Source: Marchantia polymorpha subsp. ruderalis
Taxonomy: Eukaryota; Streptophyta; Marchantiopsida; Marchantiales; Marchantiaceae
Assembly (NCBI GenBank): GCA_037833965.1
Contig: AP031355.1
Location: forward strand, 16,145,501 to 16,209,500
DNA length: 64,000 nt
Direction of reading: 5' to 3'
This document shows, in pieces, positions 1 to 51,599 of the stretch. The notes beneath the pieces are model-generated. The model saw only the letters and a list, made by a program, of their open reading frames with translations, searched no databases and was not told the DNA's origin. The number at the start of each line of letters is the position of its first letter. Within the stretch, counting starts at the first letter, position 1. The position numbers were made by a program, and so were the translations under genes.

Positions 1-647
1 CGCAATGTTGAGGCTGAACCGATTGCGGATGCTGCCGCTCCGGCTTCCACAGAACGGGCTGCGCGCCTACGAGGAACGGCTGATAGCCAGAAAGCTTGAT
101 TTCTTGCTATGGGGATGGAACTACATTTGTGTGGATATGGTGCGCGAGTGGCTGAAGCCACAGGGACCACCTTCGCGCGGATTGCGTCCGCATGTCGATC
201 GGTGGACGGTCCAAGATTGGGCGCAGGCGTTGGGAAGGTGTGCCGGCATCCCAGGGCACCTCCTCTTTGATAGTGAGAGCGTCAAGGTGTCTAAGCAGGA
301 CGAGGCGCAATTTGTGGAGTTGTTCAAGCGGGAGAGGTCTACCAAGAATGGGTACAAGACCCGCGATTACAAGGATCGTTTCCGCCGAACTGTGGCTACG
401 GCGCTGCTGCAATTACTGCAGCCACACCGCGCCTGATACATCACATTGTGGCAGGTTTCTTTTGTGGAGTGCATCATCGAGGGAGCTCCAATTCACTGGG
501 CGAGCATCCTGCACAGAGTGATGCGACAGCACGCTTTTGAGGAGAAGGGGGGAACTCTAAATCACCTCTCCCCTTTCCTGATCAATTTCTATCGGCAGCG
601 AAATTGTTTGACCGCGGCGGAGCTTGCTCGTTTTCCGCCGTTGTCCG
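1..647 (+). mobile_element. Element E0, left part (subfamily A, 5' end outside window)
   Basis: This is the N-terminal part of the gag-like ORF of an element whose leader lies before the window. It shows the conserved block with LLWGWN near 110 and GTLNHLSP near 550. The copy stops at 647, where E1 is inserted; GTCCG at 643-647 is repeated at 20955-20959, where E0 resumes. E0 is the third nesting level, inside EA and EB. The copy is broken (a few breaks plus the insertion). Insertion and duplication are seen directly; family membership comes from comparison with the other copies in the window. Confidence 0.85.
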
Positions 648-2442
648 TGTGGTACCACACTTTTGGTAATTTTGAGGAAATTAAAACATTTTTGGAAAAC
701 TGTACCCTGGCAGCAATGTAAATAGCCTTCGGTGCATCAAAACAGAGTGAATTCGGAAGATCGCGGAGATTCTCGAGGGATCTCGTAGAATCTAGGAGTT
801 GGGTGCAGCAGTAAGGACGGGCACCACCCTCCCTGCGAGCTCTGCAGTTAGGATCCCTACAGCGCAAGGCGCAGAACCCGCCTTCGGAGCTGCATTCGCG
901 GCGGTAGGAAAATCCTTCATATTTAGGTCAACCCCCGGACGCCTTGACTTAGCTAGGGTCTCGTTGGAAAGAGCTCGACGCACTGATTCCAACGAGCCCA
1001 AGAACGCCAACAGCGGATAAGGACTCCGGGAGTTATGAAGGTTGTAAGATACTCAACTCTTCGCCTGCGCACAGGCGGAGAAGTTTTGTCCTATGCGCGG
1101 ACGAAGGAAGTTCGCCTGCGCACAGGCGAAATAGGGTTTGAGGTAGGCGCGAAGTTCGCCTACGCACAGGCGTCCGCCTGTGCACAGAAACTTCGGTGTG
1201 GTACCCCACTTTTGGCAATTTTGAGGAAATTAAAACATTTTTGAAAAACTGTACCCTGGCAGCATTGTAAATAGCCTTCGGTACATCAAAACAGAGTGAA
1301 TCCGGAAGATCGCGGGGATTCTCGAGGGATCTTGTAGAATCTGGGATTTGGGGTGCCGCAGTAAGGACAGGCACCACCCTCCCTGCGAGCTCCGCAGTTA
1401 GGATCTCTACGGCGCAAGGCGCAAAACCCGCCTTCGGAGGTTGCGTCCGCGGCTGTAGGGAAGCCCCCGTAATTAGGTCAACCCTTGGGCGCCTTGACCA
1501 AGTTAGGGTCCCGTTGGAAAGAGCTCGACGCGCTGATTCTAACGAGCCCAAGAACGCTTGGAACGGACGAGGACTTAGGGAGTTATCGCTACTGGAAGAA
1601 ACGGAGGCGGTCGCCTACGGCGGAAGGAGTTCGCCACCGGCGCGAATTCCGCCTACGCGGAAGGGGGATTCAAGTTTTGACCTATGCACGGACGAAGGCG
1701 TTCGCCTGTGCACAGGCGAAGTAGGGTTAGGGAAGGCGCGAAGTCCGCCTACGCACAGGCGTACGCCTGTGCACAGGCACTTCGGCGTCGGCGGGAAATC
1801 CGCCTTGGGCCCTAGAAATGCGCCTTGTGAGGTAGAAAGTGTACGGCGCCTTCCGCGCCAGCGCAGCGCCGCGTACGTCGGAAGAGCCGCCTGAGTAATC
1901 CAACAGGTACGGACCGTGCGGACGGCACGGGTGGATGCGCTCTTGGACGGACGGAGTTGCGGCGGCGGAAGCGCCGACAAAGAGACAAGGAACGGACAGA
2001 CTGGACGGAGACGGCTGACCACGGTCAACGCCTTCCGCGCCAGCGCAGCGCCGCGGACGGAATTCGCCTGCGCACAGGCGAACGCCTGTGCACAGGAGGA
2101 TGTTCAAGTTCCGCGCCGGCGGAGAATCCGCCGAGGCCCCTGCCTGCACACAGGCAGGAGTTGAATTTTTGTCCGACATGCGGACACACGCGTCAAGGCA
2201 GAAGGAGATTGGCCGAGGGGCGGTACGAACAAGTGTACCGCGCAAGGCGGAAAACTCGCCTTCGGCGCTACGCCCCCATGTCCACAGGGTGACACGCTCG
2301 CGGAGTTCAAATCCGCCAATTCGAGCGTGAGAGTTTAATCGACGACGGCGGAGCGTGAAGCCGCGCGTGAGAGCGAAGACCGTTCCAGCGTACAGCCGGC
2401 GCGGCCATCAAGTGAGACGTTCTTCACGACCAAGAGCCGACC

Positions 2443-5400
2443 ATGACCTTCGACCGGGCGGCGGAGAACGTCCCATTCTTGAATTCGCGATTCCAATCTC
2501 TTGTGCGCGCTGCGCGCATCCATCTGCTGGCTGCGGACCATTCTCGACGTCGTCACACAGGAGATTTCTTGTTGATTGAGGGAGAAGTGAGTGCGCGTGA
2601 TTTGGAATTGAGAGCGATTAGAGTTTGCCGAGAGAGAAAGAAACGCGGACAGTGCGGAAGTAGAATGAGCGGGCGAGCGAACCCCAGGAACGCAATGACG
2701 AGACCGAGCAGATTGCGGATGGTGCCACTTCGCCTGCCGCAGAACGGGCTGCGCGCTTTCGAAGAGCGCTTAATAGCAAGAAAGCTCGATTTCTTGCTAT
2801 GGGGATGGAATTACATCTGCGCGAATATGGTGCGCGAGTGGCTAGAGCCACAGGGACCACCCTCGCGCGGATTGCGTCCGCATGTTGACCGGTGGACAGT
2901 CCAAGATTGGGCGCAGGCGTTGGGAAGATGTGCTGGCATGCCAGGGCATCTCCTTTTCGACAGTGAGAGCATCAAGGTGACCAAGCAAGAAGAGGCGCAA
3001 TTTGTGGAGCTGTTCAAGACCGGGAGGTCTACCAAGAATGGGTACAGGACCCGTGATTACAAGGATCGATTTCGCCGGACTCTGTCCGCGGCGCTGATGC
3101 AATTACTGCAGCCGCACCGCGCCTGCTACATCACATTGTGGCAGGTCTCTTTTGTGGAGTGCGTCATCGAGGGAACTCCAATTCACTGGGCGAGCATCCT
3201 GCACAGGGTGATGCGGCAGCACGCGTTTGAGGAGAAGGGGGGAACTCTAAACCATCTTTCTCCTTTCCTCATCAATTTTTATCGACAGCGGAATTGTTTG
3301 ACAGCGGCGGAACTTGAACATTTTCCGCCATTGTCCATCGACCATCCCGGGAAGTATGTGCGGGAGAACGAGGTCGACACTGATGCGGAGGAGTCACCGA
3401 CTTCTACCCCATCAAGACGGAGGGACGAGGGGAGACACACCCCTGCAGCGCGAGTGCCGCGGAAGCGGCGATGGAGGGAAGAGTCTGAAGAGGAGCAGCA
3501 TCAAGAACCCTCTGCTCCCATTCGACCGCGGCCGCTGTGCGAGCCATACAGCCGGCCGAAGCAGAAGGCACGCAGACTGGTGTTACCAGCTGACAGTGCA
3601 GACACGGCGACGATTGCGACGGAGATAGGAAGTGCGTCGCCAGAAAGGCGAGAGGAAGCGCGGACGACCGCAGGAGCAGCGGGCCACGCTGCAACCTCGT
3701 CGGGAGAGAGGCCGCCTACGGGCCAAGGGCCTCCGGAGTTACCACGTGCGATGCGGACAGAGGTTCCGTTTGCGCACAGGCGAACCTCCGCGGACGGACG
3801 AGCCTCCGCGGATCGGCGAACACAAGTGGACGTGGATCTACGCTTACGCGTGGGAAGGAGCAGTCCGCCTGTGCACAGGCGCTCGCCTGTGCACAGGTCG
3901 CCTGTGCACAGGACACCTCCACACGTGCCGCCTGTGCACAGGCAAGAATCACCCCCGTTCCAACGCAGGAAGGGGAAGGAGCCGGCGGAAGAACCGCCTA
4001 CGAGACACCGGCCCTCGGGGCCAGACCCACCGGCGCACCACGCGCCGCAATTTGCGCCTTCGGCGCCAGGGCCTTCGAGCCGAGGAGATACGAGCAGAGA
4101 GCGTGCGGAGGCCGCACCATCGGCGGGAAGTCCGCCGATAGATGCGCCTTCGGCGATAGGGCCTATAGGCCAAGGAACATCGGGCGTGCGGCCCCCGGCC
4201 ATGTCGCCTTCGGCGATAGATGTCCGCGGCGCTACGCCTGCGACGGACAAGGCGCCGGCAAATGCGCCTGCGCACGGGCCGGGCACAGCCCCCACGGACC
4301 GATCGAGGGAGCAGCAGACGGAGGAGCGGAGTGACTGTCCGCGGGATGAAATCTCGATACGCGATGCGCAATCCAACCCCGCGCAGCCACCCTCCGCTCA
4401 ATCGCCTTCGGCGACGGACGACGGCGACAGTGAGAATGCGGTAGGCAATCAACCAGCGAGCGACGGGGATGCCGCTCGGATACATTCGCCTTCCGCCTTA
4501 GACATTTTGGCGACGAGCAGCGAGGCTGCAGCCGTGCCTTCGCAGGCAGCACACGTCGAGGACGTGCAGCCCCACTCGGGGCAGTCGCCGACACAATCAA
4601 TGGCGACTGAAATTCTCCACTCGGATGATGACGACGGAGGCTCCACGGAAGAAATGTCAGGAGCAGAAGACACCGAGGAGGAGGAGGAGGAAATTGTTGG
4701 AGCGCCGGCGGCGGCGCTCTCTGAGCAGGTGATTCCGTTGCTGCGGTACTTGGATCGCAAGGTCGATAAATACGCCGACCCACTCTAGCCGGGATCTTAC
4801 ATCGAGTTAGTGCGCAGGCGGACTCGCACTAAAGTCCACACCAGCAAGCTATTAGCTAGAGTGGACCAGGAGTTGAGGGACTTGAGGGAGAAGCATGAGT
4901 GCTTGTGGGGACAGTACAAGCTTAATCAGAAATTCTACAAGCACTCCGAGAAGATGAAGGATGAGAAACTGGGCGAGCTCACCAAGGAGCAGGTGAAGGT
5001 CAAGGAAGCACTCAATTCTGAGCAGGCCCAGAATCGGATTTTGTCAGAGGAGCTCGTGCGACAGACGCGGTTGTTGGAACAATGTCAGCTCGCACGGCAG
5101 GCGGATGAAGAATTAATCCGCAGTTTGCAGTCAGAGTGTGGCGAATTGAGAGCGCAACGTGCTGAAGCCGAATCGCAATTAGTGACGATTGAAGAGGATC
5201 GCAGGAAGGAGGCGGATCGCACGAAGGTGGAGACGGCGAGGCGAGTCGCCCACTGTCTCAAGGGCTACGCCCACTGGGAAGTGAAGGCGCAGGAGAAACT
5301 CACACTGCGTGAGTTTGAATTGCGCGCAGCCGGGTTGTTGTCAGGCGACAGTAGGAGTCGGCGGAAGGTAGCGAAGAAGCTCGAGGCCTTTCTGTCGAAG

Positions 5401-5580
5401 GCACAGGATACCATGTCCGCCCTCGAGGGGGAGGTGTCCGCGGCGTTGCAGCGGTTGGGACTGCGTAGTCGAGCGGAAGAGTGGCAGGGTAGGGAGTTAG
5501 TGCGCGGCAGTCGGCCGCGCAGGAGACGTAGTACAGGTTCCGCGGAGTGTAGTGTAGCGTGGTTCCGTGCAGGCGTGTAG
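2443..5580 (+). pseudogene. Gag-like ORF region of E2
   Basis: The start ATG lies in the context GACCATGACC, which is also present in E1 (7250) and EA (24742), so I take it as the family start. Regions in order: basic N-terminus; conserved globular block at about 2700-3340 (LLWGWN, RPHVDRWTVQDWAQ, GTLNHLSP); long disordered P/S/A/R-rich linker at about 3360-4600, much of it encoded by palindromes; acidic patch at about 4620-4695; conserved LLRYLDRK block near 4740; predicted coiled coil at about 4800-5230; conserved HCLKGYAHWE helix block at about 5250-5480; Arg-rich tail ending SVAWFRAGV. There is no CCHC knuckle, protease, RT or integrase. The globular block vaguely recalls 'putative plant transposon protein' domains, but I could not confirm that. 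The ORF has about one break. Confidence 0.75.
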
Positions 5581-5616
5581 CGTAGTGCAGTGTAGTGCTA
5601 GGTAGGACTTAGAAGG

Positions 5617-5645
5617 TATAAAATAGTTCCAGGCGTTTTGCCTGG
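5617..5645 (+). promoter_or_regulatory. Outward TATA box and hairpin of E2
   Basis: TATAAAATA at 5617-5625 is followed by CCAGGC-GTTTT-GCCTGG at 5629-5645. Both lie just after the ORF stop and point towards the 3' end. The same pair occurs in all six copies that have a 3' region. In four of them the stem is CAAGGC/GCCTTG, a compensated C-G to A-T change. The hairpin ends about where initiation would be expected from this TATA box. Confidence 0.75.
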
Positions 5646-7249
5646 GGTTCTTTCCCATCAGAAGTGCAGATCATGAACCCATTTCCTTTGCGTGTTTGTG
5701 TCCTTGAGTTCTGTCACCACGCACGAGGAGTTACAACTTAGCGTTCCGCATTTTGTAGCTGAAGGCCTTCGGCCGAATGTTCAGAACTAGTACATTGGTT
5801 AGAGACTTGAGTAGTTCGGATCTGCACCTGCGGGTGACTGCCGATGCTCATAGCCAGTGACTAGTTAGATACTTGAACAGTTTCGCCCCTACACCTTCGA
5901 GTGTTTCTTTCTGATTGTACTCCCTTGGGATTTTTCCCCTGAATGCCAAAGTGAAGTTTTGCTACTTCGTGTAAGCCTTGGTTGTAAATTCAGGTTACGC
6001 TGCAGCAGGTGCCTTGAGGGTAACCCCTGTAGTATTTCTGGGAATGACAAGTGCCTGAGAATTCAAACTCTTCAATAGACTGTTGTTGTGTTACTAGAAT
6101 GTTTCTCAGTGAGTCCTTCAGTGCGGACCTGTGTTCTCTGCGCGTTTTGTGAGTTGAGAGTGTTGTTCACCGCGTCTGAGTGACTTCGATCCGAAGTAGG
6201 TAGTCCAAACCGGGTTTCCTACACTAGCAGCAAGCTAGTGGAAGCGTTGTAAAAGCCGGAGTTGGAAGTCACTACCCGCAGCTTCGCAGAGTGTACTCTT
6301 GAGAGACTTTCCCCCTGAAATCTTGAAGTAGAGGTCCTAACGGATCTCTGGGTTGTGTTTCTGTAGTTTCAGGTGTGTGTGTGTGTGTGTGTTACGCTGC
6401 ACTGTGCGACCTCCGAGTGCGCTCCGAGTGGACACTTGCAGTATTTCTGGGAGTGACAGTCGCCTGAGAATTCAAACTCCTCAATAGTCTGTTAAAACGT
6501 GACACTTTGTACCCTGTGTGTTCCTCTGTCCCTGTGGGTTCGACCTTTCTACCACTATATTGCAGTTTTAGCCTTCAGTGGGTTATTACATTCGGCGTCG
6601 GCGGGAAATCCGCCTTGGGCCCTAGAAATGCGCCTTGTGAGGTAGAAATTGTACGGCGCCTTCTGCGCCAACGCAGCGCCGCGGACGAGCAAGGAGCCGC
6701 CAGAATAGTAAAATCCGTACGGACCGTACGGACGGGACGGATGGATGCGCTCTTGGACGGACGGAGTTGCGGCGGCGGAAGCGCCGACGAAGAGACAAGG
6801 AACGGACAGTCTGGACGGAGACGGTTGACCGCGGTCAACGCCTTCCGCGCCAGCGCATCGCTGCGGACGGAATTCGCCTTCGCACAGGCGAGCGCCTGTG
6901 CACAGGAGGATGAAGTTCCGCGCCGGCGGAGAATCCGCCGAGGAGTCCGCCTGCGTGCAGGCGGGAGTTGAACTTTTGTCCGACATGCGGACACACGCGC
7001 CGAGGCAGAAGAGGATTGGCTGAGGAGCGGTACGAACGAGTGTACCGCGCAAGGCGGAAAACCCGCCTTCGGCGCTGCGCACCCATGTCCGCGGTGTAGT
7101 ACGCTCGCGGAGTTCAAATTCGCCAATTCGAGCGTGAGAGTTTAATCGGCGACGGCGGAGCGTGAAGCCGCGCGTGAGAGCGGAGACCATTTCAGCGTAG
7201 AGCCGGCGCGGCCATCAATTGAGACGTCCTCCACGAGCAAGAGCCGACC

Positions 7250-7983
7250 ATGACCTTCGACCGGGCGGCGGAGAGCGTCCCATTCTTGAATTCGCGATTC
7301 CATTCTCTAGTGCGAGCTGCGCGCGTCCATCTGCTGGCTGCTAAGCATTCTTGACATCACCGCGCAGAGGATTTCTTGGTGATTGAGGGAGAAGTGAGTG
7401 CGCGTGATTTGGAATTGAGGGCGATTAGAGTTTGCCGAGGAAGAAAGGAGCTCGAGCGGAGCGGAAGTAGAATGAGCGGGCGGGCGAACTCCAAGAACGC
7501 AATGACGAGACCGGGCCGATTGCGGATGCTGCCGCTCCGTCTATCACAGAACGGGCTGTGCGCTTTCGAGGAGCGCTTGATAGCAAGAAAGCTCAATTTC
7601 TTGCTATGGGGATGGAACTACATCTGTGCGGATATGGTGCGCGAGTGGCTAGAGTCACAGGGACCACCCTCGCGCGGATTGCGTCCGCATGTTGATCGGT
7701 GGACAGTCCAAGATTGGGCGCAGGCATTGGGGAGATGTGCCGGCATGCCAGGGCACCTCCTCTTTGACAGTGAGAGCATCAAGGTGACCAAGCAGGAAGA
7801 GGCTCAATTTGTGGAGCTGTTCAAGACCGGGAGGTCTACCAAGAATGGGTACAGGACCCGCGATTACAAGGATCGATTCCGCCGGACTTTGGCCGCGGCG
7901 CTAATGCAATTACTGCAGCCACACCGCGCCTGCTACATCACATTGTGGCAGGTCTCTTTTGTGGAGTGCATCATCGAGGGAAC
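7250..7983 (+). pseudogene. Gag-like ORF region of E1, first piece
   Basis: This piece opens with the family start ATG at 7250 (MTFDR) and carries the basic N-terminus and most of the conserved WGWN block, ending in FVECIIEG at the E3 insertion site (GGAAC at 7979-7983). It is closely similar to 2443-3175 of E2. The remainder of the E1 ORF lies beyond E3 and E4. The E1 ORF is broken by those two insertions and about one other break. Confidence 0.75.
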
Positions 7984-9337
7984 TGTGGTAACACACTTTT
8001 TGTTTTTTGCAGAATTTAAACAATTTTAGAAAACTAGTACCGAAGCAGTGTTTGTAGTTAGAAAAGGGTACGTTAAATAGAGTGGATTGAGGAGATCGTC
8101 ACGAGGTCACGAAGAATCACGTAGTCGGATGTACCAGCGCCAATGTCTTCGGCGCCTTCGGCAAAAGCTCCTTTTCTGAGGTGTCTCTACTCACGCGCTT
8201 CCAGCGTTTAAGGAAGCTACGCTTCCGGCGCAGACACCTCCGGAGGAGATTTTGCTAAAGACGTCAGAAGAACGGCACGGACCTCTGAAGGCTTCCGACC
8301 ATGAGTGCGCCTTCGGCGATGCGCCGCTAGCGCGGAAAGGGAAACCTTCATAACGATCGGAATACACGGTAGTCCCGGTTGGTTGAAGTCATTAGAAAGA
8401 GCTCGGGACGCTCGTTCTAACGAGCCCAAGATCGTCGGAGATGGATAATGGACGAAGAAGTTATGAGCATCGGAAAACTCGTAGCCAGACATGCGCCGTT
8501 CGCGCTAGGGTTCACAGTCGGAAAGGACTCCCGTACGCCTTCGGCGATGCGCCTTCCGCGGAATCGCGCGCTCATGGAAGGAAAGCAACTCAGAGTCGGA
8601 AGCGCCTTTGGCGGCTGCTCACGGAAGAAAAGCGCCGGCCGGATGTACGCCTCCGACGTGGCGCTGATAGGCGGATGCGCTGGCATGATTTGCGCTGGCA
8701 TGACTTGCGCCGGCGGGATATGCGCCGTCAGCAATGGACGAGGCAGAACGGACAAAATAAGCGGTACGAATACGCGCCGGCGTAATTCGCGCCGACTGGA
8801 TGTGCGCCTCCAGCAAGGCGCCGACGGATAAGGAACACGCCAGCGGCGACACGCCTCCGGTGATGGTCGGGTTAGGAGAAGACAACATAGCCGACGTATA
8901 CACTGCGGCGAACTCGAGTCCGGAAGACGGTGGCGGCGGGAGAATTCAATATTCACGCATGCGAATGCGCGCAGTGCGGAGACGTGAATTCGAGCATGCA
9001 AGGGCGAACCGTTAGGCCGTATAGCTGGCTGCGTAAATTGTAACCAGTAAGAACGTTGGACGATCTTGAATTCGGAGAAGAAAAGACTGCTCTCCAGTCT
9101 CATTCTCTCATTCTTGATTTTGCGATTCCCAGCTTCCAAGATTACGCGCAAGGGCGGAGAGACCTGCAGAGAGAGGAGAGAGTGCGGAGACGAGTTGCGC
9201 AAAGATCTTGACAGACCTTGGAGAGAATTGCGAGTAGCAAACTTGAGCGCGAGAGAAGAGCGAGTGACAGCAGTCAGTGCTTAAGCGGCCGAAGCGCAGT
9301 GGCGATTGTGAGAGAGCGAGTAGAGTGGAGAGCGTCT

Positions 9338-11660
9338 ATGTGTGCAGGAAACGCAATGTCGAAGGTCCCCCAGCTGCGAGTGTCTCCACTCAGGGTGCCG
9401 CAGATCGGTCTACGCGCATTTCAAGATGTGCTGATGGGGCTGAAGCTCGATTTCCTCCTGTGGGGATGGAACTGGACATGTCCGGAGATGGTGCGCGAGT
9501 ATCTGCAGGAGAGAAACAAGCCCTCACGCGGATTCCGTCCACATCCAGAAAGATGGGACATTTGTGACTGGGCGCAGGTGTTGGGCAGGTGTGCCGGCGA
9601 GGAAGGGTATCTCCTCTTCGAGGCCGATAGCATGAAGGTGTCCAAGGAGGAAGAAATCTCCTACAATGAGCTTTTCAAAGTTGCCAGGCATCCCAAGAAC
9701 GGTTTCCGGACACGGGATTACAAAGATCGATTGCGGAGAAATGTCGCGACTGCATTGTTGCAGATATTGCAGCCGACCAAGACCGCTTACATGCATGGTT
9801 GGCAGGTAGGATTTGTGGAGCTAGTGTTGTCAGGAGCTCTAGTGCATTGGGCACGGCTCCTGTGGAAGGTGACGCGCCAACATGCGCAAGAAGAGAGAGG
9901 AGGAACCCTCAATCATCTTTCGCCTTACCTGATTGTGTTTTATCGGGCGATGGGATGTTTGACAAATTCAGAGCGGACACGGTTTCCGCTGCTGACACGG
10001 AGCTATCTAGGTAGATACTCACGGGAGGCCGAAGTAGACACGGATCCGGACGAGGAACCTGCCAGTCCGCCTCCGACTCCGCCCCCAGCAAGAGCAGCAG
10101 AAGAACGTCGAAGTGAGCGCATTCCGCGAAAGCGAAAGTGGGATGAGAGACCTGAGGACAGGCAGCCGGAAGTGCCAGCTGCGCCGACTCGTAGTCGGCC
10201 AACCAACGAGCCTCATAGTCGACCAAAACAGAGGGCACGCAAAATGCCAACTAGTACTGAGGAGACCGGGCGTACTCCGGTCTGGCGGAATCCCACGCAG
10301 GAGGAGATAATCGCGCAGATTCAGGGGAAGTCGACAAATACCTCTGCGCAGAAGGCACCAATGCCTTCGGAAGAAGACGGACGAACTGACAGTCGGCCGA
10401 CTACGAGTCGGGCGACTGAAGGTCGACAAACGAAAGAAAAGCCAATTGAGCGGCGCGTTGAACCGGACAGCAGGCCGGAAGCAGAAGAGAGTTTGGCTGA
10501 CGAGCCAACAACCCTCAGAGGGTCGTCTTCGGCGGAAGGCACTTCTGGAAAAACGCCGCCAGCAAGCAGGCCAAGTGGAGTGAAGACGCGCAGGGTGTAT
10601 CCGACTGCCAGTCGGACAATTGCTAGTCGGCCGACTGCGAGTCGGTCAACAGAGAGTCGGCCGGATTCGCCGACTGCGAGACGGACAGGGCCGGCAACCA
10701 GTGTGCGGACGCCTTCGGCGGACGCAACTTCAGCGAAGACACCTTCCGCGCAGATCGCGCCGGAAGGGCAGGCAGCAGAAGCGGGCGGTGCAAAGGTGAC
10801 AAAAGTCACTGCGGCGTCGACCCCTTCGGAAACCGAAGATCGAGCCGGAACAGGGGCTCAAGCAGTGAGATCCCCCACTGCCTTGGATATTTTAGCAGGT
10901 AGTGGAGCGGCAGTCGCGGCGGAAGCTGTTGCGCGCCACAGTTCCAGGGAGTCGCCAAGGGATTCGGTGGCGACTGAAATCCTCGAAACGGAGGATGAGA
11001 CGAGCTCGGAAGAGCAGGAAGCGGATTCTGTGCAGAAAACGCCAACAGGGGTGTTGTGCGAGCAGATAGTCCCACTCCTGCGATATCTGGATCGCAAGAC
11101 ATCCAAGTACTCGGGTACCGGAAAACCGCAGTCTTATGTGGAGACTGTCAAGCGCAGGACGAGGAGCAAGGTGGCCACTTGGGCCTCTAGGTGCCAAGTA
11201 TTGTAGGATAGGAACACTACCCTCCGACAACACCTGGCGGTCACACAGAAGCTATACCAAACCTTGCAGCAGCAGAGGGAGGATGCGGCGACGAAAAGCC
11301 AAGCGGATGCCGAGCTAATGCGGGCAAAGATCGAGTCGGAATTGCAGGAAGAGCGGAGACAAAACCGCATCCTAGCAGCAGAGCTTGCGCGCCAGACGCG
11401 CGCCTTAGAAGAAAGTCAAAGAATACGCAAGGAGGATGAAGAGTTGTTGCGCAACTTGCAATCCGAGTGCTCGGATTTGCGGGCGCAGCGCGCAGATGCG
11501 GAAATGCAGCTAGCCCCGACGCCTGGGGTTGCGCAGCCGGTCGGAAGATTGGCAGGGTAGAGATAGAGAGCGAGGCAGTCCGGCGCGCAGGAGGCGCAGC
11601 ACCGGATCTGCAGAGTGCAGTAGTGTAGTTTGGTTTCGTGCAAGTGTTGCGAGTAGTAGA
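9338..11660 (+). pseudogene. Gag-like ORF region of E3
   Basis: The likely start is ATG at 9338 or 9356; the second (MSKVPQLRVSP) is shared with E4. The conserved block is clearly homologous to subfamily A (LLWGWN, DWAQ, LGRCAG, GTLNHLSP) but diverged along its length. A Pro/Ser/Arg-rich linker with repeated SRPTASR-like units follows, then the LLRYLDRK motif and the start of the coiled coil. There is no zinc knuckle or pol domain. The linker repeats differ from the PVHR/PSA repeats of subfamily A, so the linker evolves much faster than the two flanking domains. Broken, about two breaks. Confidence 0.7.
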
Positions 11661-11695
11661 TATGATAGCGTAGTGTTAGTTAGGACCTTTGAGGG

Positions 11696-11724
11696 TATAA
11701 AGTAGATCAAGGCGTTTTGCCTTG
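11696..11724 (+). promoter_or_regulatory. Outward TATA box and hairpin of E3
   Basis: TATAAAGTA at 11696-11704 is followed by the hairpin CAAGGC-GTTTT-GCCTTG at 11708-11724, in the same place and orientation as in E2 but with the A-T form of the second stem pair. Confidence 0.7.
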
Positions 11725-12626
11725 GGACTCTTCCAGTTTCGGAAGTGCAGATCAGGAACTCACTTTCTTGGCGTGTTTGTGCATTTGGTCCTGGCACCAC
11801 GTAGAGAAGCTGTAGCATAGCGAAGTTACCGTATGTTGTAGTTGAAGGCCTTCGGCTGAATGTTCAGAGCTAGCACCCGGTCAGAGACTTGAGTAGTGCG
11901 GATCTGCACCTGCGGGTGATTTCTGATGCTTAGAGCCGGCTGCGAGTTAGATACTTGAACAGTTCCCCCTTACTCCTTCAAGTGACATATCCTGATTGTA
12001 CTCCTACGGGAAGTTTCCCCTGAATGCCAATGTGAAGTTTTATTACTTCGTGTAAGCCTTGGTTTGCAATTCAGGTTGTGTGTGTGTGTTACTAGATCGT
12101 GTCTCAGTTAAGTTCTCAGTCGGGCCTGCACTCCCTGCGTTTGGTGTGAGTCGAGGGTGACGTCCACGGTGTATGAAGGGGCTTCGTTCCGAAGTGGGAA
12201 GTCCAGTCCGGGTACCCTACGCTAGTTCCTGGCGGAAGGGCAGTAAAAGCCGGAGTGGGAGTCACTACCTGCAGAACCTCTGAGTGAACTTTTGAGACAC
12301 TTTGCTCCTGAAATCCAAAGCAGAGGTCCTGACCGACCTCCGAGTTGTGCTTTTGCCAGTTTCAGGTGTGTGTGTGTGTGTGTGTTGAGTGACTACGCTG
12401 TACTGTGCATCCTCCGAGCATCCTCCGAGTCGAGATCCTCCTCCGAGTTGAGCCTCCGAGTCGAGCACTGCAGTATTTCTTGGAGTGACAGTCGCCTGAG
12501 AATTCAAACTCTACAAAAGTCTGTTAAACGTGACACTTTTACTCTGTGTGTTGCCTCTGTCCCTGTGGGTTCGATCTTTTTACCACCATACTGCAGTTTT
12601 AGCCTTTGGTGGGTTATTACAGGAAC

Positions 12627-13267
12627 TCCAATTCACTGGGCGAGCATCCTGCAGAGAGTGATGCGACAGCACGCTTTTGAGGAGAAGGGGGGAACTCTAA
12701 ACCATCTCTCTCCTTTCCTCATCAATTTTTATCGACAGCGGAATTGTTTGACAGCGGCGGAGCTTGCGCGTTTTCCGCCGTTGTCCGTCGACCATCCCGG
12801 GAAGTATGTGCGGGAGAATGAGGTCGACACTGATGCAGAGGAGTCACCGACTTCTACTCCGTCAAGACGGAGGGACGAAGGGAGGAACACTCCTGCAGCA
12901 CGAGCGCCGCGGAAGCGGCGATGGAGAGAGGAGTCCGAAGAGGAGCAGCATCAAGAACCCTCTGCTCCCATTCGACCGCGGCCGTTGTACGAGTCATACA
13001 GCCGGCCGAAGCAGAAGGCGCGAAGACTGGTGTTACCAGCCAACAGCGCGTACACGGCGATGATTGCGACGGAGAAAGGAAGTGCGTCGCCAGAGAAGAA
13101 TGAGGAAGCGCGGACGTCCGCAGGAGCAACGGACCACGCTGCAGCCTCGACGGGCGAGAGGCCGCCTACGGGCCAAGGGCCTCCGGAGTTACCACGTGCG
13201 TTGCGGACAGGTGTTCCGTTTGCGCACAGGCGAGCCTCCGCGGACGGACGAGACTCCGCGGACAGAC
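12627..13267 (+). pseudogene. Gag-like ORF region of E1, middle piece
   Basis: This is a continuation of E1 after E3. It carries the end of the conserved block (GTLNHLSPFLINFYRQR), then RRWREE and SRPKQKARR motifs and the start of the low-complexity linker. It ends at the E4 insertion site (CAGAC at 13263-13267). The insertion boundaries are exact by comparison with E2 near 3173 and with the sequence that resumes after 18169. Confidence 0.75.
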
Positions 13268-14645
13268 TGTGGTAACACACTTTTTGTTTTTTTGCAGAAT
13301 TTAAACAATTTTAGAAAACAAGTACCGAAGCAGTGTCTGTAATAAGAAAAGGGTACGTTAAATAGAGTGGATTGAGGAGATCGTCACGAGGTCACGAAGA
13401 ATCGCGAAGTCGGATGTACCAGCGCCAAATGTCTTCGGCGCCTTCGGCAAAAGCTCCTTTTCTGAGATGTCTCTACTCACGCGCTTCCAGCGTTTAAGGA
13501 AGCTACGCTTCCGGCGCAGACACCTCCGGAGGAGATTTTGCTAAAAACGTCAGAAGAACGGCACGGGCCTCTGAAAGCTTCCGACCATGAGTGCGCCTTC
13601 GGCGATGCGGCGCTAGCGCGGAAAAGGAAACCTTCATAACGATCGGAATACACGGTAGTTCCAGTTGGTTGAAGTTGCATTAGAAAGAGCTCGGGACGCT
13701 CGTCCTAACGAGCCCAAGAACGTCGGAGATGGATCAGGGACGAAGAAGTTATGAGCATCGGAAAACTCGTAGCCGGACATGCGCCGTTCGCGCTAGGGTT
13801 CACAGTCGGAAAGGACTCCCGTACGCCTTCGGCGATGCGCCTTCGGCGGAATCACGCGCTCATGGGAGAAAATCAACTCAGAGTCGGAAGCGCCCTTGGT
13901 GGCTGCAAAACAGAAGAAAAGCGCCGGCCGGATGTACGCCTCCGACGTGGCGCTGAAAGGCGGATGCGCTGGCATGATTTGCGCTGGCATGACTTGCGCC
14001 GGCGGGATATGCGCCGTCACCAATAGACGAGGCAGAACGGACAAAACAAGTGGTACGAATACGCGCCGGCGTAATTCGCGCCGACTGGATGTGCGCCTCC
14101 AGCAAGGCGCCGACGGATAAGGAACACGCCAGTGGCGACACGCCTCCGGTGATGGGGCGGGTTAGGAAAAGACAACATAGCCGACGTATACACTGCGGCG
14201 AACTCGAGTCCGGAAGACGGTGGCGGCGGGAGAATTCAACATTCACGCATGCGAATGCGCGCAGTGCGGAGACGTGAATTCGAGCATGCAAGGGCGAACC
14301 GTTAGGCCGTATAGCCGGCTGCGTAAATTGTAACCAGTAAGAACGTTGGACGATCTTGAATTCGGAGAAGAAAAGACTGACCTCCAGTCTCATTCTCTCA
14401 TTCTTGATTTTGCGATTTCCAGCTTCCAAGATTACGCGCAAGGGCGGAGAGACCTGCAGAGAGAGGAGAGAGTGCGGAGGCGAGTTGCGCAAGGATCTTG
14501 ACAGACCTTGGAGAGAATTGCGAGTAGCGAACTTGAGCGTAAGAGAAGAGAGAGTGACAGCAGTCAGTGCTTGAGCGGCCGACGCGCAGTGGCGATTGTG
14601 AGAGAGCGAGTGGAGGGGAGAACGACTGTGTGTGCAGGAAACGCA

Positions 14646-17206
14646 ATGTCGAAGGTCCCCCAGCTGCGAGTGTCTCCACTCAGAGTGCCGCAGATCGGTC
14701 TGCGCGCATTCCAAGATGTGCTGACAGGGCTGAAGCTCGATTTCCTCCTGTGGAGATGGAACTGGACATGTCCGGAGATGGTGCGCGAGTATCTACAGGA
14801 GAGACACAAGCCCTCACGCGGATTCCGTCCACATCTAGAGAGGTGGGACATTTGTGACTGGGCGCAGATGTTGGGCAGGTGTGCCGGCGAGGAAGGGTAT
14901 CTCCTCTTCGAGGCCGATAGCGTGAAGGTGTCCAAGGAGGAAGAAATCTCCTACAATGAGCTTTTCAAAGTTGCCAGGCATCCCAAGAACGGTTTCCGGA
15001 CACTGGATTACAAAGATCGATTGCGGAGAAATGTCGCGACTGCATTGCTGCAGATATTGCAGCCGACCAAGACCGCTTACATGCATGGTTGGCAAGTAGG
15101 ATTTTTGGAGCTAGTGTTGTCAGGAGCTCCAGTGCATTGGGCACGGCTCCTGTGGAAGGTGACGCGCCAACATGCGCAAGAAGAGAGAGGGGGAACCCTC
15201 AATCATCTTTCGCCTTACCTGATTGTGTTTTATCGGGCGATGGGATGTTTGACAAATTCAGAGCGGACACGGTTTCCGCTGCTGACCCGGAGCTATCCAG
15301 GTAGATACTCGCGGGAGGCCGAAGTAGACACGGATCCGGACGAGGCACCTGCCAGTCCGCCTCCGGCTCCGCCCCCAGCAAGAGCAGCAGAAGAACGTCG
15401 AAGTGAGCGCGTTCCGCGAAAGCGGAAGTGGGATGAGAGACCTGAGGACAGGCAGCAGGAAGTGCCAGCTGCGCCGTCTCGTAGTCGGCCAACCAACGAG
15501 CCTCACAGCCAACCGAAACAGAGGGCACGCAAAGTGCCAACTAGTACTGAGGAGACCGGGCATACTCCGGTCCGGCGGAGTATCTTGCCCACGCAGGAGG
15601 AGATAATCGCGCAGATTCTGGGGAAGTCGGCAAATACCTCTGCGCAGAAGGCACCAATGCCTTCGGAAAAAGACAGACGGACTAACAGTCGGCCGACTAC
15701 GAGTCGGGCGACTGAAGGTCGACAAACGGAAGGAAGGCCGACTAAGCGGCGCGTTGAATCGGACAGCAGGCCAGAAGCAGAAGGGAGTTTGGCTGACGAG
15801 CCAACAACCCTCAGAGGGTCGCCTTCGGCGGAAGGCACTTCTGGGAAAACGCCGCCAGCAAGCAGGCCAAGTGGAGTGAAGACGCGCAGGGTGTATCCAA
15901 CTGCCAGTCGGACACCTGCTAGTCGGCCGACTGCGAGTCGGTCAACAGAGAGTCGGCCAGATTCGCCGACTGCGAGACGGACAGGGCCGTCGACCAGTGT
16001 GCGGACGCCTTCGGCGGACGCACCTCCAGCGAAGACACCTTCCGCGCAGATCGCGCCGGAAGGGCAGGCAGCAGAAGCGGGCGGTGCAAAGGTGACAAAA
16101 GTCACTGCGGCGTCGACCCCTTCGGAAACCGAAGATCGAGCCGGAACAGGGGCTCAAGCAGTGGGATCCCCCACTGCCTTGGATATTTTAGCAGGGAGTG
16201 GAGCGGCAGTCGCGGCGGAAGCTGCTGCGCGCCAGAGTTCCAGGGAGTCGCCAAGGGATTCGGTGGCGACTGAAATCCTCGAAACGGAGGATGAAACGAG
16301 TAGGAAGAGTAGGAAGCGGACTTTGTGCAGAAAACGCCAACAGGGGTGTTGTGCGAGCATATAGTTCCACTCCTGCGATATCTGGATCGCAAGACATCCA
16401 AGTACTCGGGTACCGGAAAACCGCAGTCTTACGTGGAGACTGTCAAGCGCAGGACGAGGAGCAAGGTGGCCACTTGGGCCTATAGGTGCCAAACATTGCA
16501 GGATAGGAACGCTACCCTCCGACAGCACCTGGCGGTCACGCAGAAGCTATACCAAACCTTGCAACAGCAGAGGGAGGATGCGGCGACGAAGAACCAGGCG
16601 GATGCCGAGCTAATGCGGACAAAGATCGAGTCGGAATTGCAGGAAGAGCGGAGACAAAATCGCATCTTAGCAGAAGAGCTTGCGCGCCAGAAGCGCGCCT
16701 TAGAAGACAGTCAAAGTACACGCAAGGAGGATGAGGAGTTGTTGCGCAACTTGCAATCCGAGTGCGCGGATTTGAGGGCGCAGCGCGCATATGCGGAAAT
16801 GCAGCTAGCAGAGGTGGAAGGCTGCTGCCGGACGCGAGAAGAGTTGGCGACGCGGGTGACTCACTATCTAAAAGGATACGCCCATTGGGAGGTGGCAGCT
16901 CAAGAGAAGATCACACTCAGGGAGTTCGAGCTTCAGGCGGCGGCATTGACGGAGGGTGACAGTCGGAGTCGGCGGCGAGTAGCGAGGAAATTAGAATCCT
17001 TCTTGTCGGGTGCGCGCGACACTATGGCGCACTTGGAGTCGGAAGTGACTGCAGCCCTCCGGCGTCTGGGGTTGCGCAGCCGGTCGGAAGATTGGCAGGG
17101 TAGAGATAGAGAGCGAGGCAGTCCGGCGCGCAGAAGGCGCAGCACCGGATCTGCAGAGTGCAGTAGTGTAGTTTGGTTTCGTGCAAGTGTTGCGAGTAGT
17201 AGATAG
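14646..17206 (+). pseudogene. Gag-like ORF region of E4
   Basis: The start is taken as ATG at 14646 (MSKVPQLRVSP), shared with E3. Order: conserved WGWN block at about 14660-15300; proline-rich linker with SRPTTSR/SRPTASR repeats at about 15330-16250; acidic stretch near 16260-16300; LLRYLDRK near 16370; coiled coil at about 16430-16850; HYLKGYAHWE helix block at about 16860-17090; Arg-rich tail (RRRRSTGSAEC). The C-terminal half is much closer to subfamily A than the linker is, which points to constraint on the coiled-coil and helix blocks. No pol domains. Broken, about one to two breaks. Confidence 0.72.
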
Positions 17207-17238
17207 GATAGCGTAGTGTTAGTTAGGACCTTTGAGGG

Positions 17239-17267
17239 TATAAAGTAGATCAAGGCGTTTTGCCTTG
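17239..17267 (+). promoter_or_regulatory. Outward TATA box and hairpin of E4
   Basis: TATAAAGTA starts at 17239 and the hairpin CAAGGC-GTTTT-GCCTTG lies at 17251-17267, with the same layout as E3. Confidence 0.7.
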
Positions 17268-18169
17268 TGACTCTTCCAGTTTCGGAAGTGCAGATCAGGA
17301 CTCACTTTCTTGGCGTGTTTGTGCATTTGGTCCTGGCACCACGTAGAGAAGCTGCAGCATAGCGAAGTTACCGTATGTTGTAGTTGAAGGCCTTCGGCTG
17401 AATGTTCAGAGCTAGTACACCGGTTAGAGACTTGAGTAGTGCGGATCTGCACCTGCGGGTGATTTCTGATGCTCAGAGCCGGTTGCGAGTTAGAGACTTG
17501 AACAATTCCCCCTTACTCCTTCGAGTGACATATCCTGATTGTACTCCTACGGGAAGTTTCCCCTGAATGCCAAAGTGAATTTTTATTACTTCGTGTAAGC
17601 CTTGGTTTGCAATTCAGGTTGTGTGTGTGTGTTACTGGATTGTGTCTCAGTTAAGTTCTCAGTCAGGCCTATACCCCCTGCGTTTGGTGTGAGTCGAGGG
17701 TGACGTCCACGGCGTATGAAGGGGCTTCGTTCCGAAGTGGGAAGTCCAGTCCGGGTACCCTACGCTAGTTCCTGGCGGAAGGGCAGTAAAAGCCGGAGTG
17801 GGAGTCACTACCTGCAGAACCTCTAAGTGAACTTTTGAGACACTTTCCCCCTGAAATCCGAAGCGGAGGTCCTGACCGACCTCCGAGTTGTGCTTTTGCC
17901 AGTTTCAAGTGTGTGTGTGTGTGTGTTGAGTGACTACGCTGTACTGTGCATCCTCCGAGCATCCTCCGAGTCGAGCATCCTCCTCCGAGTCGAGCCTCCG
18001 AGTCGAGCACTGCAGTATTTCTGGGAGTGACAGTCGCCTGAGAATTCAAACTCTACAAAAGTCTGTTAAACGTGACACTTTTTACTCTGTGTGTTGCCTC
18101 TGTCCCTGTGGGTTCGATCTTTTTACCACCATACTGCAGTTTTAGCCTTTGGTGGGTTATTACACAGAC

Positions 18170-19953
18170 GAGCCTCCGCGGACAGACGACCACAAGCGGA
18201 CGTAGACCTACGCCTACGCGTGGGAAGAAGCAGTCCGCATGTGCACAGGCGCTCGCCTGTGCACAGGTCGCCTATGCACAGGTCACCTCCACACGTGCCG
18301 CTTGTGCACAGGCAGGAATCACCCCCATTCCAACGTAGGAAGGGGAAGGAGCCGGCGGAGGATCCGCCTACGAGACACCGGCCTTCGGGGCCAGACCCCC
18401 CGGCGCACAACGCGCCGCGATTCGCACCTTCGGCGCCAGGGCCTTCGAGCCGAGGAGATACGAGCAGGGAGCGTGCGGAGGCCGCACCATCGGCGGGTAA
18501 TCCGCCGGTAGATGCGCCTTCGGCGGTAGGGCCTCAAGGCCAAGGGACATCGGGCGAGCGGCCCCCGGCCATGTCGCCTTTGGCGATGGACGTCCGCGGC
18601 GCTACGCCTGCGGCGGACAAGGCGCCGGCATTTGCGCCTGTGCACAGGCCAAGCACAGCCCCCGCGGACCGATCGAGGGAGCAGCAACAGGCGGAGGAGC
18701 GGAGTGACTGTCCGCGGGATGAAATTTTGGTGCGCGATGCGCAATCAAACCCCGCGCAGCCACCCTCCGCTCGATCGCCTTCGGCGGCGGACGTCGGCGG
18801 CAGAGAGGATACGGTAAACGACCAACAAGCGGGCGGCGGGGATGCAGCACGGGCACATTCGCCTACCGCCTTAGACATTTTAGCAAAGAGCAGCGAGGCT
18901 GCAGCAGTGCCTTCGCAGGCAGCACACGTCGACGACGTGCAGCCCCACTCGGGTCAGTCGCCGACGCAATCAATGGCGACGGAAATTCTCCACTCGGATG
19001 ATGACGACGGAGGCTCCACCGAAGAAATGTCAGGAGCAGGGGACACCGAGAAGGAGGAGGAGGAAATTGTTGGAGCGCCGGCGGCGGCGCTCTCTGAGCA
19101 GGTGATTCTGTTGCTGAGGTACTTGGATCGCAAAATCGATAAATACGCCGACCCACTTCAGCCGGGATCTTACATCGAGTTAGTGCGCAGGCGGACTCGC
19201 ACTAAAGTCCACACCAGCAAGCTACTAGCTAGAGTGGACCAGGAGTTGAGGGAATTGAAGGAGAAGCATGAATGCTTGTGGGGTCAGTATAAACTCAATC
19301 AGAAATTCTACAAGTACTCCGAAAAGGTGAGGGATGGGAAGCTGGAAGAGCTCACCAAGGAGCAGGTGAAGGTCACGGAAGCACTAATTTCTGAGCAAGC
19401 CCAGAATCGGATTTTGTCAGAGGAGCTCGTGCGACAGACGCGGTTGTTAGAGCAGTGTCAGCTCGCACGACAGGCGGATGAGGATGTAATCCGCAGGCTA
19501 CAGTCAGAGTGTGGCGAATTGAGAGCGCAACGTGCTGAGGCCGAATCGCAATTAGTGGTAATTGAAGAGGATCGCAGGCAGGAGGCAGATCGCACAAAGG
19601 TGGAGACGGCGAGGCGTGTCGCCCACTGTCCCAAGGGCTACGCCCACTGGGAAGTGGCGGCGCAGGAGAAACTCACACTGCGTGAGTTTGAACTTCGCGC
19701 AGCCGGGTTGTTGTCAGGCGACAGCAGGAGTCGGCGGAAGGTAGCAAAGAAGCTCGACGCTTTTCTGTCGAAGGCGCGGGATACCATGTCCGCCCTCGAA
19801 GTGGAGGTGTCCGCGGCGTTGCAGCGATTGGGACTGCGCAGTCGAGCGGAAGACTGGCAGGGTAGAGAGTTAGTGCGCGGCAGTCCGTCGCGCAGGAGAC
19901 GTAGCACAGGTTCCGCGGAGTGTAGTGTAGCGTGGTTCTGTGCAGGCGTGTAG
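18170..19953 (+). pseudogene. Gag-like ORF region of E1, last piece
   Basis: This is the continuation of E1 after E4. It holds the palindrome-encoded linker (PVHR and PSA repeats), the acidic patch near 18990-19070, the LLRYLDRK motif near 19113, the coiled coil, the GYAHWE helix block and the Arg-rich tail ending SVAWFCAGV. It reads without interruption from the E4 edge to the stop. The reading is very close to the matching part of E2. The E1 3' region follows directly. Confidence 0.78.
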
Positions 19954-19989
19954 CGTAGTGCAGTGTAGTGTTCGTTAGGACTTAGAAGG

Positions 19990-20018
19990 TATAAAATAGT
20001 TCCAGGCGTTTTGCCTGG
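19990..20018 (+). promoter_or_regulatory. Outward TATA box and hairpin of E1
   Basis: TATAAAATA at 19990-19998 and the hairpin CCAGGC-GTTTT-GCCTGG at 20002-20018, identical to E2. Confidence 0.72.
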
Positions 20019-20959
20019 GGTTCTTTCCCAAACTCAGAAGTGCAGATCAGGAACCCATTTCCTCCTGCGTGTTTGTGTCACCACGCACGAGGAGTTACAA
20101 CTTAGCGTTCCGCATTTTGTAGCTGAAGGCCTTCGGCCGAATGTTCAGAGCTAGTACATTGGTTAGAGACTTGAGTAGTTCGGATCTGCACCTGCGGGTG
20201 ACTGCCGATGCTCATAGCCAGTGACTAGTTAGATACTTGAACAGTTTCGCCCCTACACCTTCGAGTGTTTCTTTCTGATTGTACTCCTTTGGGATTTTTC
20301 CCCTGAATGCCAAAGTGAAGTTTTGCTACTTCGTGTAAGCCTTGGTTGTAAATTCAGGTTACGCTGCAGCAGGTGCCTTGAGGGTAACCCCTGTAGTATT
20401 TCTGGGAATGACAAGTGCCTGAGAATTCAAACTCTTCAATAGACTGTTGTTGTGCTATTGGAATGTTTCTCAGTGAGTCCTTCAGTGCGGACCTGTGTTC
20501 TCTACGCGTTTTGTGAGTTGAGAGTGTTGTTCACCGCGTAAGAGTGACTTCGATCCGAAGTAGGCAGTCCAAACCGGGTTTCCTACACTAGCAGCAAGCT
20601 AGTGGAAGTGTTGTAAAAGCCGGAGTTGGAAGCCACTGCCCGCAGCTTCGCTGAGTGTACTCTCGAGAGATTTTTCCCCCTTGAAATCTTGAGTAGAGGT
20701 CCTAACGGATCTCTGGGTTGTGTTTCTATAGTTTCAGGTGTGTGTGTGTGTGTGTGTTACGCTGCACTGTGCGACCTCCGAGTGCGCTCCGAGTGGACAC
20801 TTGCAGTATTTCTGGGAGTGACAGTCGCCTGAGAATTCAAACTCATCAATAGTCTGTTAAACGTGACACTTTGTACCCTGTGTGTTCCTCTGTCCCTGTG
20901 GGTTCGACCTTTCTACCACTATATTGCAGTTTTAGCTTTTAGTGGGTTATTACAGTCCG

Positions 20960-23138: not shown

Positions 23139-23174
23139 CATAGTACAGTGTAGTGTTAGTTAGGACTTAGAAGC

Positions 23175-23203
23175 TATAAAGTAGTTCAAGGCGTCTTGCC
23201 TTG
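23175..23203 (+). promoter_or_regulatory. Outward TATA box and hairpin of E0
   Basis: TATAAAGTA at 23175-23183 and the hairpin CAAGGC-GTCTT-GCCTTG at 23187-23203. The stem is conserved while the loop has changed. Confidence 0.7.
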
Positions 23204-27605: not shown

Positions 27606-27641
27606 CGTAGTGCAGTGTAGTGCTAGTTAGGACTTAGAAGC

Positions 27642-27670
27642 TATAAAGTAGTTCAAGGCGTCTTGCCTTG
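27642..27670 (+). promoter_or_regulatory. Outward TATA box and hairpin of EA
   Basis: TATAAAGTA at 27642-27650 and the hairpin CAAGGC-GTCTT-GCCTTG at 27654-27670, as in E0. Confidence 0.7.
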
Positions 27671-41720: not shown

Positions 41721-41721
41721 G

Positions 41722-41902
41722 GATGCCACAAACGTGACATACACAACCAACTTGAGGAGATGGCAATGCTTTCACAATAAAGTGTCACACATGTGACATA
41801 CACAACGAACTTGAGGAGGTGGCGATGCTTTGAAAGTCAAGTGTCATAAATGTGACATACACAATCAACTTCAAAAGTAGTGGCCTTATCTTGACAATCA
41901 AG
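41722..41902. repeat. Tandem repeat, about 59-bp unit, three copies
   Basis: Three units begin near 41724, 41782 and 41840, each with GTGACATACACAA, then CAACTT and GGTGGC-like ends. The units differ by about 10-20 percent by eye. Non-coding in all frames. Confidence 0.8.
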
Positions 41903-45600: not shown

Positions 45601-45704
45601 TATTTCAATTTGCCCATTTTGTAATTTCTCTTATGTATTTCATCAACATTAGTTCTAATTTCATTGCAATATTTTGTGACAAAAACTCTTATAAACGCAC
45701 GGTA

Positions 45705-51430: not shown

Positions 51431-51438
51431 TGATCAAG

Positions 51439-51590: not shown

Positions 51591-51599
51591 TTTTTTGTT

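What the first reader, a model, noticed from the sequence alone, without database searches (positions are those of the whole stretch)
1197..6590. Unclassified element type: TG...CA ends, 5-bp duplication, one gag-like ORF, no pol, no direct terminal repeats
The ends and duplication length are those of LTR elements, but each unit carries a 3-kb ORF and no second LTR, PBS, PPT or pol. Three models: giant solo LTRs of about 5 kb with an ORF in U3 (as MMTV has sag); gag-only non-autonomous elements; or Ginger/TDD-like DNA transposons, which use integrase-type ends and short duplications. I favour the first because of the outward promoter.
Basis: partly seen in the sequence, partly recalled or inferred. 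Interest (0 to 1): 0.85.

Follow-up and report, generated by a model that had tools for sequence, protein, structure and literature searches.

The report
Gene-carrying giant LTRs in a liverwort
The unit is one long terminal repeat left behind by a liverwort retrotransposon of the Ty3/gypsy kind; unusually, the repeat itself holds a large protein gene, so the gene is doubled at each jump and can stay in the genome when the rest of the element is lost.

Summary
Window 1197-6590 (5,394 bp, TG...CA, duplication TTCGG) is a solo LTR. Elsewhere in this genome the unit flanks internal regions of about 5.8 kb with a PBS matching tRNA-Asp, gag-zinc knuckle-protease, RT-RNaseH-integrase and a polypurine tract: an 11.2-kb-period Ty3/gypsy element. 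Three paired copies carry perfect 5-bp duplications. The host is Marchantia polymorpha or a near relative. The unusual part is a sense ORF of 1,045 aa (about 961 from the conserved start) inside the LTR, behind the PPT and before the TATA box. It is not gag, and has no Pfam match above cut-off, no PDB match and no transmembrane segment. It is under purifying selection (dN/dS 0.11-0.36 in both end domains; indels mostly in threes). A second family with about 40% identical protein shows the same layout. The window's first 29 kb are LTRs, mostly nested, without internal sequence. The layout recalls MMTV sag; my searches found no plant case in print. Likely an accessory, perhaps nuclear, protein made from the 3' LTR of the element's RNA; expression and function are inferred. 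New variant of a known kind.

The parts
1197..6590 (+). Focal solo LTR 'Z', 5,394 bp, family 1
   Evidence: ends and TSD; same unit paired around gag-pol elsewhere
1192..1196 (.). left target-site duplication TTCGG of Z
6591..6595 (.). right target-site duplication TTCGG of Z
2443..5580 (+). LTR ORF of Z (1,045 codons plus stop in intact copies), broken here by one TAG at codon 782; the start shared with family 2 corresponds to the ATG at 2695
   Evidence: selection
5617..5622 (+). TATAAA, the only one in the LTR, 37 bp behind the ORF: presumed promoter of the element; R and U5 follow (inferred)
648..20954 (+). solo LTR 'Y' (family 1), TSD GTCCG, interrupted by Z, V1 and V2
7984..12621 (+). 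solo LTR 'V1' (family 2), 4,638 bp, TSD GGAAC, inside Y; LTR-ORF relative at 9350-11648
13268..18164 (+). solo LTR 'V2' (family 2), 4,897 bp, TSD CAGAC, inside Y; LTR-ORF relative at 14640-17191
1..24141 (+). LTR 'X' (family 1), interrupted by Y; its left end is outside the window, so its own TSD could not be seen
24142..28607 (+). right part of an older LTR 'W' (family 1, unit positions 649-1665 and 1892-5394), probably the one X landed in
28653..29328 (-). fragment of unit positions 1-669

Best explanation
Shown: the unit is a solo LTR of a Ty3/gypsy retrotransposon with LTRs of 5.4 kb and an internal region of 5.8 kb in the order PBS (tRNA-Asp), gag-CCHC-protease, RT-RNaseH-integrase, PPT. 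The PPT lies in front of an additional sense gene of about 960-1,045 codons, so the gene falls inside the LTR, and each LTR carries it. The gene is under purifying selection, and a second old family has it too. Inferred: only the copy in the 3' LTR lies downstream of the element's own promoter (the TATA box of the 5' LTR lies behind the ORF), so the protein is made from the genomic RNA or a spliced form of it, in the place where env would be. Each round of reverse transcription copies this U3 into both LTRs. Recombination between LTRs removes gag-pol and leaves a solo LTR that still holds the gene. The protein has a basic N domain, a Pro/Ala/Arg/Ser-rich linker, a conserved Glu/Leu/Arg-rich C domain (coiled-coil-like by composition; no coiled-coil program was run), an Arg-rich tail and no transmembrane segment. 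It is most likely an accessory, perhaps nuclear, protein of the element (nucleic-acid binding, regulation or anti-silencing; about 40%), not capsid and probably not envelope.
For: Paired copies at 11,184-11,195 bp; gag, protease, RT, RNase H, integrase between LTRs of the C6 array; PPT; PBS pairing over 18 bases with tRNA-Asp(GTC), 29 of 29 gene matches with the needed base, 6 of 6 loci given called tRNA-Asp; 5-bp TSD around 3 paired copies and 1 solo of 6 loci tested and 4 solo LTRs in the window. LTR gene: unbroken in three array copies; dN/dS N domain 0.11-0.28 in 6 comparisons, C domain 0.14-0.36 in 5; gaps in threes inside the ORF (e.g. 18 of 25 against 1 of 20 outside); third codon positions change most; family 2 has pol and PPT directly before its LTR. 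Position of sag in MMTV: passages of PMC3026287.
Against: No RNA or protein data, so expression is unproven. No TATA box was found upstream of the ORF in the LTR, so solo LTRs may be silent. The true start codon is uncertain. Some old copies have broken ORFs. The N-domain model is useless (mean pLDDT 39), so the nuclear role rests on composition only. No complete family-2 element was read, and the inside of the three TSD-flanked pairs was not read.
Confidence: 0.9

Rival explanations
1. The LTR ORF is an env-like or movement protein that happens to lie behind the PPT.
For: Sense gene downstream of pol, fast change (dN 0.49 against 0.075-0.121 in pol); env-like ORFs are the usual sense ORFs there (passages of PMC7264820).
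Against: No 19-aa stretch with hydropathy mean above 1.14; C domain rich in charged residues with Arg-rich tail.
Confidence: 0.12
2. The long ORF is a by-product of high G+C and low-complexity DNA, without protein function.
For: The nest is 55-59% G+C, the linker is of low complexity, and chance ORFs exist on the other strand.
Against: Low dN/dS in both end domains, gaps in threes inside but rarely outside the ORF, and a 37-54% identical protein in a family with synonymous sites near saturation.
Confidence: 0.04
3. A gag-only non-autonomous retroelement: the ORF is a gag and the unit moves on the enzymes of others.
For: The copies in the window lack pol.
Against: Paired copies have their own gag and pol between two units, and the ORF has no match to gag.
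Confidence: 0.01
4. A Ginger/TDD-like DNA transposon with integrase-type ends.
For: TG...CA ends and short duplications.
Against: No integrase or transposase domain in the unit; units are paired around an RT-bearing region with PBS and PPT.
Confidence: 0.005

Closest known systems
MMTV superantigen gene (sag)
   Same: A protein gene inside the 3' LTR makes the LTR exceptionally long; it is read from RNAs that start upstream (passages of PMC3026287).
   Different: MMTV LTRs are about 1.3 kb, here 5.4 kb; different host, element family and protein; no RNA seen here. No homology was tested.
Plant OTA elements (Athila, Tat, Ogre, Retand) with extra ORFs
   Same: Ty3/gypsy, large, LTRs up to about 5 kb in non-chromoviruses, extra ORFs, non-Met tRNA primers such as tRNA-Asp (passages of PMC6317226).
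   Different: Their extra ORFs are described in the internal region (PMC7264820; Retand antisense ORFs, PMC11963269); here the gene is sense and inside the LTR, and has no Transposase_28, Transposase_32 or PMD match.
Rice Retrosat2
   Same: Ty3/gypsy element with LTRs over 3.2 kb and an extra ORF without known relatives (PMC3485330, abstract and passages).
   Different: ORF0 lies upstream of gag in the internal region, not in the LTR.
VANDAL anti-silencing proteins (VANC), recalled
   Same: Model of an accessory plant transposon protein that binds short motifs repeated in the element's own DNA.
   Different: Not tested. The only parallel here is a palindrome, CTGTGCACAG, 7 times in Z (0.015 expected) and 0 in the two internal pieces; it was not among the most repeated 10-mers of the family-2 LTR V2.

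Membership tests
Ty3/gypsy LTR retrotransposon | two direct LTRs with TG...CA ends and short target duplication | tested here: met
Ty3/gypsy LTR retrotransposon | PBS and PPT next to the LTRs | tested here: met
   the PBS starts 22 bp behind the LTR, further than the 0-5 bp used in PMC6317226
Ty3/gypsy LTR retrotransposon | domain order gag, protease, RT, RNase H, integrase | tested here: met
Tat lineage | additional RNase H (aRH) | tested here: inconclusive
   Pfam found only the usual RT_RNaseH models in pol; REXdb and a tree were not available
Chromovirus | chromodomain behind the integrase | tested here: inconclusive
   no chromodomain among Pfam matches at E up to 1; divergent ones could be missed
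Retand-type extra ORF | antisense ORF with Transposase_28 (PF04195) | tested here: not met
   the ORF is sense; no PF04195 match in three LTR ORFs at E up to 10; none in the genome, but the control was silent
Ogre-type extra ORF | plant mobile domain (PF10536) | tested here: not met
   no match in the LTR ORFs; one match below cut-off in the genome, elsewhere
Env-like protein | transmembrane segment | tested here: not met
   highest 19-aa hydropathy mean 1.14; simple scale only
sag-like arrangement (works like, not a member) | gene within the 3' LTR, read from spliced RNA of the element | tested here: inconclusive
   position met; RNA not testable here
Ginger/TDD transposon | integrase-like transposase between inverted repeats, no RT | tested here: not met

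The most novel reading that the evidence does not exclude
The LTR gene makes solo LTRs into self-standing genes: where a solo or nested LTR lies downstream of another LTR's outward promoter, an intact copy is expressed and supplies a trans-acting, perhaps anti-silencing or regulatory, protein to full-length relatives. The solo LTR would then be a working part of the element's life and not debris.
Probability: 0.15. Interest if true: 0.85.

Novelty: new variant of a known kind. Interest (0 to 1): 0.6.

Why it matters
LTRs are commonly taken to be non-coding control regions, and solo LTRs to be empty remains. Here a selected gene of about 1,000 codons lies in the LTR in at least two old families, so the recombination that disarms the element can keep the gene. 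In a model liverwort this makes a clear test possible: are genes in solo LTRs expressed, and do they act in trans? It also warns annotators that LTR ORFs in such genomes can pass for host genes or unknown repeats.

Tried and rejected
Gag-only element and Ginger/TDD transposon: rejected by the paired copies. LTR ORF as a copy of gag or pol: no blastp match better than E = 2.1. Transposase_28 and plant mobile domain: no match in the LTR proteins; the genome searches for PF04195, PF20167 and PF10536 found nothing above cut-off, but the 14 control genomes were silent in all three, so they say little. The only Pfam match of the LTR protein is a phage family, PF16928, far below its cut-off (E 0.032); I take it as chance. 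Relatives in viral contigs: 8 stretches matched a peptide pattern, none confirmed. Structure of the N domain: mean pLDDT 39, so not used and no fold search run. Exchange of U3 cassettes between families as the cause of the fast change of the LTR protein: not needed, as synonymous sites are also saturated or nearly so in pol (pS 0.75-0.86, against 0.68 in the LTR gene). L033-L034 were fetched in the hope of a paired family-2 copy; I found only LTR pieces and one weak stretch of pol there.

Limits: pattern counts are exact matches of 19-32 bases and miss mutated copies; patterns differ in length, so ratios are rough. Of the 6 loci, C8:9.97M starts behind a PPT (array member) and C6:2.97M had no LTR end where I looked; neither counts for or against. 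Rows with stops (window 7250-7987 and 26802-27602) were dropped from the protein alignments. A second match in L033 (unit codons 752-951, 78%) belongs to a neighbouring family-1 LTR and was left out. Codons that are stops were skipped in the dN/dS scripts.

Full report
What is there. The unit 1197-6590 begins TGTGGTACCCC, ends GGGTTATTACA and is flanked by TTCGG on both sides. The ORF is 781 aa, then one TAG, then 256 aa in the same frame up to 5580. It starts at 2443; the start shared with the second family corresponds to the ATG at 2695. One TATAAA lies at 5617, just behind the ORF. No internal gag or pol sequence was found in the window.

Where it comes from. The window is part of a 241-Mb genome of nine contigs, eight of 24-33 Mb and one of 5.6 Mb. 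An exon of an auxin response factor matches PDB 6sdg_A in 55 of 57 aligned residues, the two others lying at the edge of the exon; the next chain, ARF5, scores half. That 6sdg is Marchantia polymorpha ARF2 is recalled. With eight large contigs and one small one, I take the host to be M. polymorpha or a very near relative.

The LTR test. The first 1,804 bases of the unit gave 40 full-length matches of 99-100%, the best 40 of 3,094 first-look candidates being all that was scored. Several sit in pairs at 11,186-11,195 bp, three in a row at 11,188 on C6 and five in a row at 11,184 on C2; other neighbours lie 11.7, 19 or 21.5 kb apart. Reading the C6 array in pieces shows, between two units, ORF A (943 aa: gag, zinc knuckles, aspartic protease) and ORF B (943 aa: RT, RNase H, integrase). 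Just before the downstream unit lies AATTGAGGAGGGGGGCA, a polypurine tract. Twenty-two bases behind the upstream unit lies TGGCGCCGCTGCCGGGGA, whose 18 bases pair without mismatch with the 3' end of tRNA-Asp(GTC) plus CCA. The pattern allowed A or G at one place; 29 of 29 matches have the G that the PBS needs, and ARAGORN calls tRNA-Asp in 6 of 6 loci given. Of six loci tested for duplications, three paired copies have perfect ones (GTCAC, CTGCT, GTTAC), one single copy has AGACG, and two could not be scored. I did not read the inside of those three pairs. The three array LTRs differ at 1, 4 and 5 of 5,392 positions. So the unit is an LTR, and the window copy a solo LTR.

Numbers. Exact matches in the genome: LTR start 1,602, PPT plus LTR start 472, LTR end plus PBS leader 743; reversed controls 0. 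Family 2: LTR start 1,529, PPT plus LTR start 327. If each PPT junction marks one two-LTR element, about 660 of 1,602 and 875 of 1,529 LTR starts would be solo; a rough guide only, as arrays and mutated copies disturb it.

The nest. The first 24 kb of the window are solo LTRs in one another: Z (TTCGG), V1 (GGAAC) and V2 (CAGAC) inside Y (GTCCG), and Y inside X, whose left end is outside the window. The right part of a further LTR, W, fills 24142-28607, probably the one X landed in, and a fragment on the other strand ends at 29328. V1 and V2 (4,638 and 4,897 bp, 96.1% identical over aligned bases) belong to a second family with the ends TGTGGTAACAC...TTACA. Family 2 has the same PPT before its LTR, and integrase before that, in the loci fetched.

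The gene in the LTR. Its N domain is basic (pI 9.3), its middle is rich in Pro, Ala, Arg and Ser, its C domain in Glu, Leu and Arg with a tail of pI 11.4; no 19-aa stretch has a hydropathy mean above 1.14. That the C domain is a coiled coil is my reading; no program was run for it. It matches no PDB chain at E up to 1 and no Pfam family above cut-off. Selection, by Nei-Gojobori on tblastn codon pairs against an intact copy: N domain 0.11-0.28 in six comparisons of more than 60 codons, and 0 for the near-identical window copy Z; C domain 0.14-0.36 in five, one not computable; linker 0.41-0.57 in five within family 1, and 0.14 and 0.34 in two against family 2, one not computable. The values against family 2 are rough, as synonymous sites are near saturation. 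Gap lengths divisible by three, inside against outside the ORF: W 3 of 3 and 1 of 5; X 4 of 5 and 1 of 4; Y right 1 of 2 and 1 of 5; Y middle 0 of 1 and 1 of 2; V2 18 of 25 and 1 of 20. So the gene was kept working in the lineages that moved, while solo copies decay. In family 2, 40 of the 71 scored copies have no stop in the matched part, by my count of the table; these are the best of 13,901 candidates and so biased to intact ones.

Speed. Between the families the C-terminal half of pol is 86-88% identical in the three long stretches (dN 0.075-0.096) and 79.6% in one short one (dN 0.121); the LTR protein is 42% identical (dN 0.49). The LTR protein thus changes four to six times as fast as this part of pol. 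The last kilobase of the LTR (promoter, presumed R and U5) behaves the other way: 95-97% identical among family-1 copies whose ORFs are 82-92% identical, and 81% between the families, where the stretch before the ORF is down to 50%.

How it most likely works. Shown: the gene lies between the PPT and the LTR's TATA box, is in each LTR, is under selection, and survives in solo LTRs. Inferred: the 3' LTR copy is read from the element's own RNA, perhaps spliced, as MMTV sag is (passages of PMC3026287); the 5' copy and solo copies are silent unless another promoter lies upstream; in a head-to-tail nest that can be a neighbour's LTR. The function is a guess from build: accessory, perhaps nuclear, about 40%; env-like about 12%; otherwise open.

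What is known. The survey of plant LTR elements (PMC6317226; passages) sorts extra ORFs as before or behind the polyprotein and finds LTRs up to about 5 kb in non-chromoviruses; the word Marchantia is not in its main text. The review of additional ORFs (PMC7264820; passages) places them mostly between pol and the 3' LTR. Retand elements have antisense Transposase_28 ORFs there (PMC11963269; passages); Retrosat2 has ORF0 upstream of gag (PMC3485330; abstract and passages). The liverwort genome paper PMC9985172 reports 222 full-length LTR elements in M. polymorpha ruderalis, and the passages I saw mention no gene in an LTR. A search for phrases such as 'ORF within the LTR' with 'retrotransposon' gave 0 papers; one for 'LTR encodes' and the like with 'plant' and 'retrotransposon' gave 7, none of them such a case by title and start of abstract (listing only). 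My ten searches of one library do not prove absence from print.

Verdict. Ordinary in kind (a Ty3/gypsy element and its solo LTRs), unusual in that more than half of the LTR is a selected gene. New variant of a known kind.

Noticed in passing
L011:1480-1560 (- strand): gag-protease and pol lie in one frame, parted by a single stop in the context UAG CAA UUA, the TMV-type read-through signal (motif recalled): pol may be made by stop read-through. Read in one copy; ORF ends in L009 have the same spacing.
   Followed up: partly
window 5581-6590: The last kilobase of the LTR is far more conserved than the ORF (95-97% against 82-92% within family 1; 81% against 59% between families): a constrained promoter or leader RNA, or exchange between elements.
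   Followed up: partly
window 1705-3942 (within Z): Palindrome CTGTGCACAG 7 times in Z, 4 of them in the ORF's linker; 0.015 expected; none in the two internal pieces.
   Followed up: partly
G000:C1 near 2.35, 2.76 and 3.11 Mb: Near-identical LTR-ORF copies with equal scores on the small 5.6-Mb contig, as in large repeated blocks of a sex chromosome or an assembly duplication.
   Followed up: no
window 52484-54058: Single-exon ORF of 524 aa with a SANT_DAMP1_like domain (PF16282, E 1.8e-26): a DMAP1/SWC4-like host gene.
   Followed up: no
window 40001-52000: G+C drops to 26-30% here, against 55-59% in the LTR nest.
   Followed up: no
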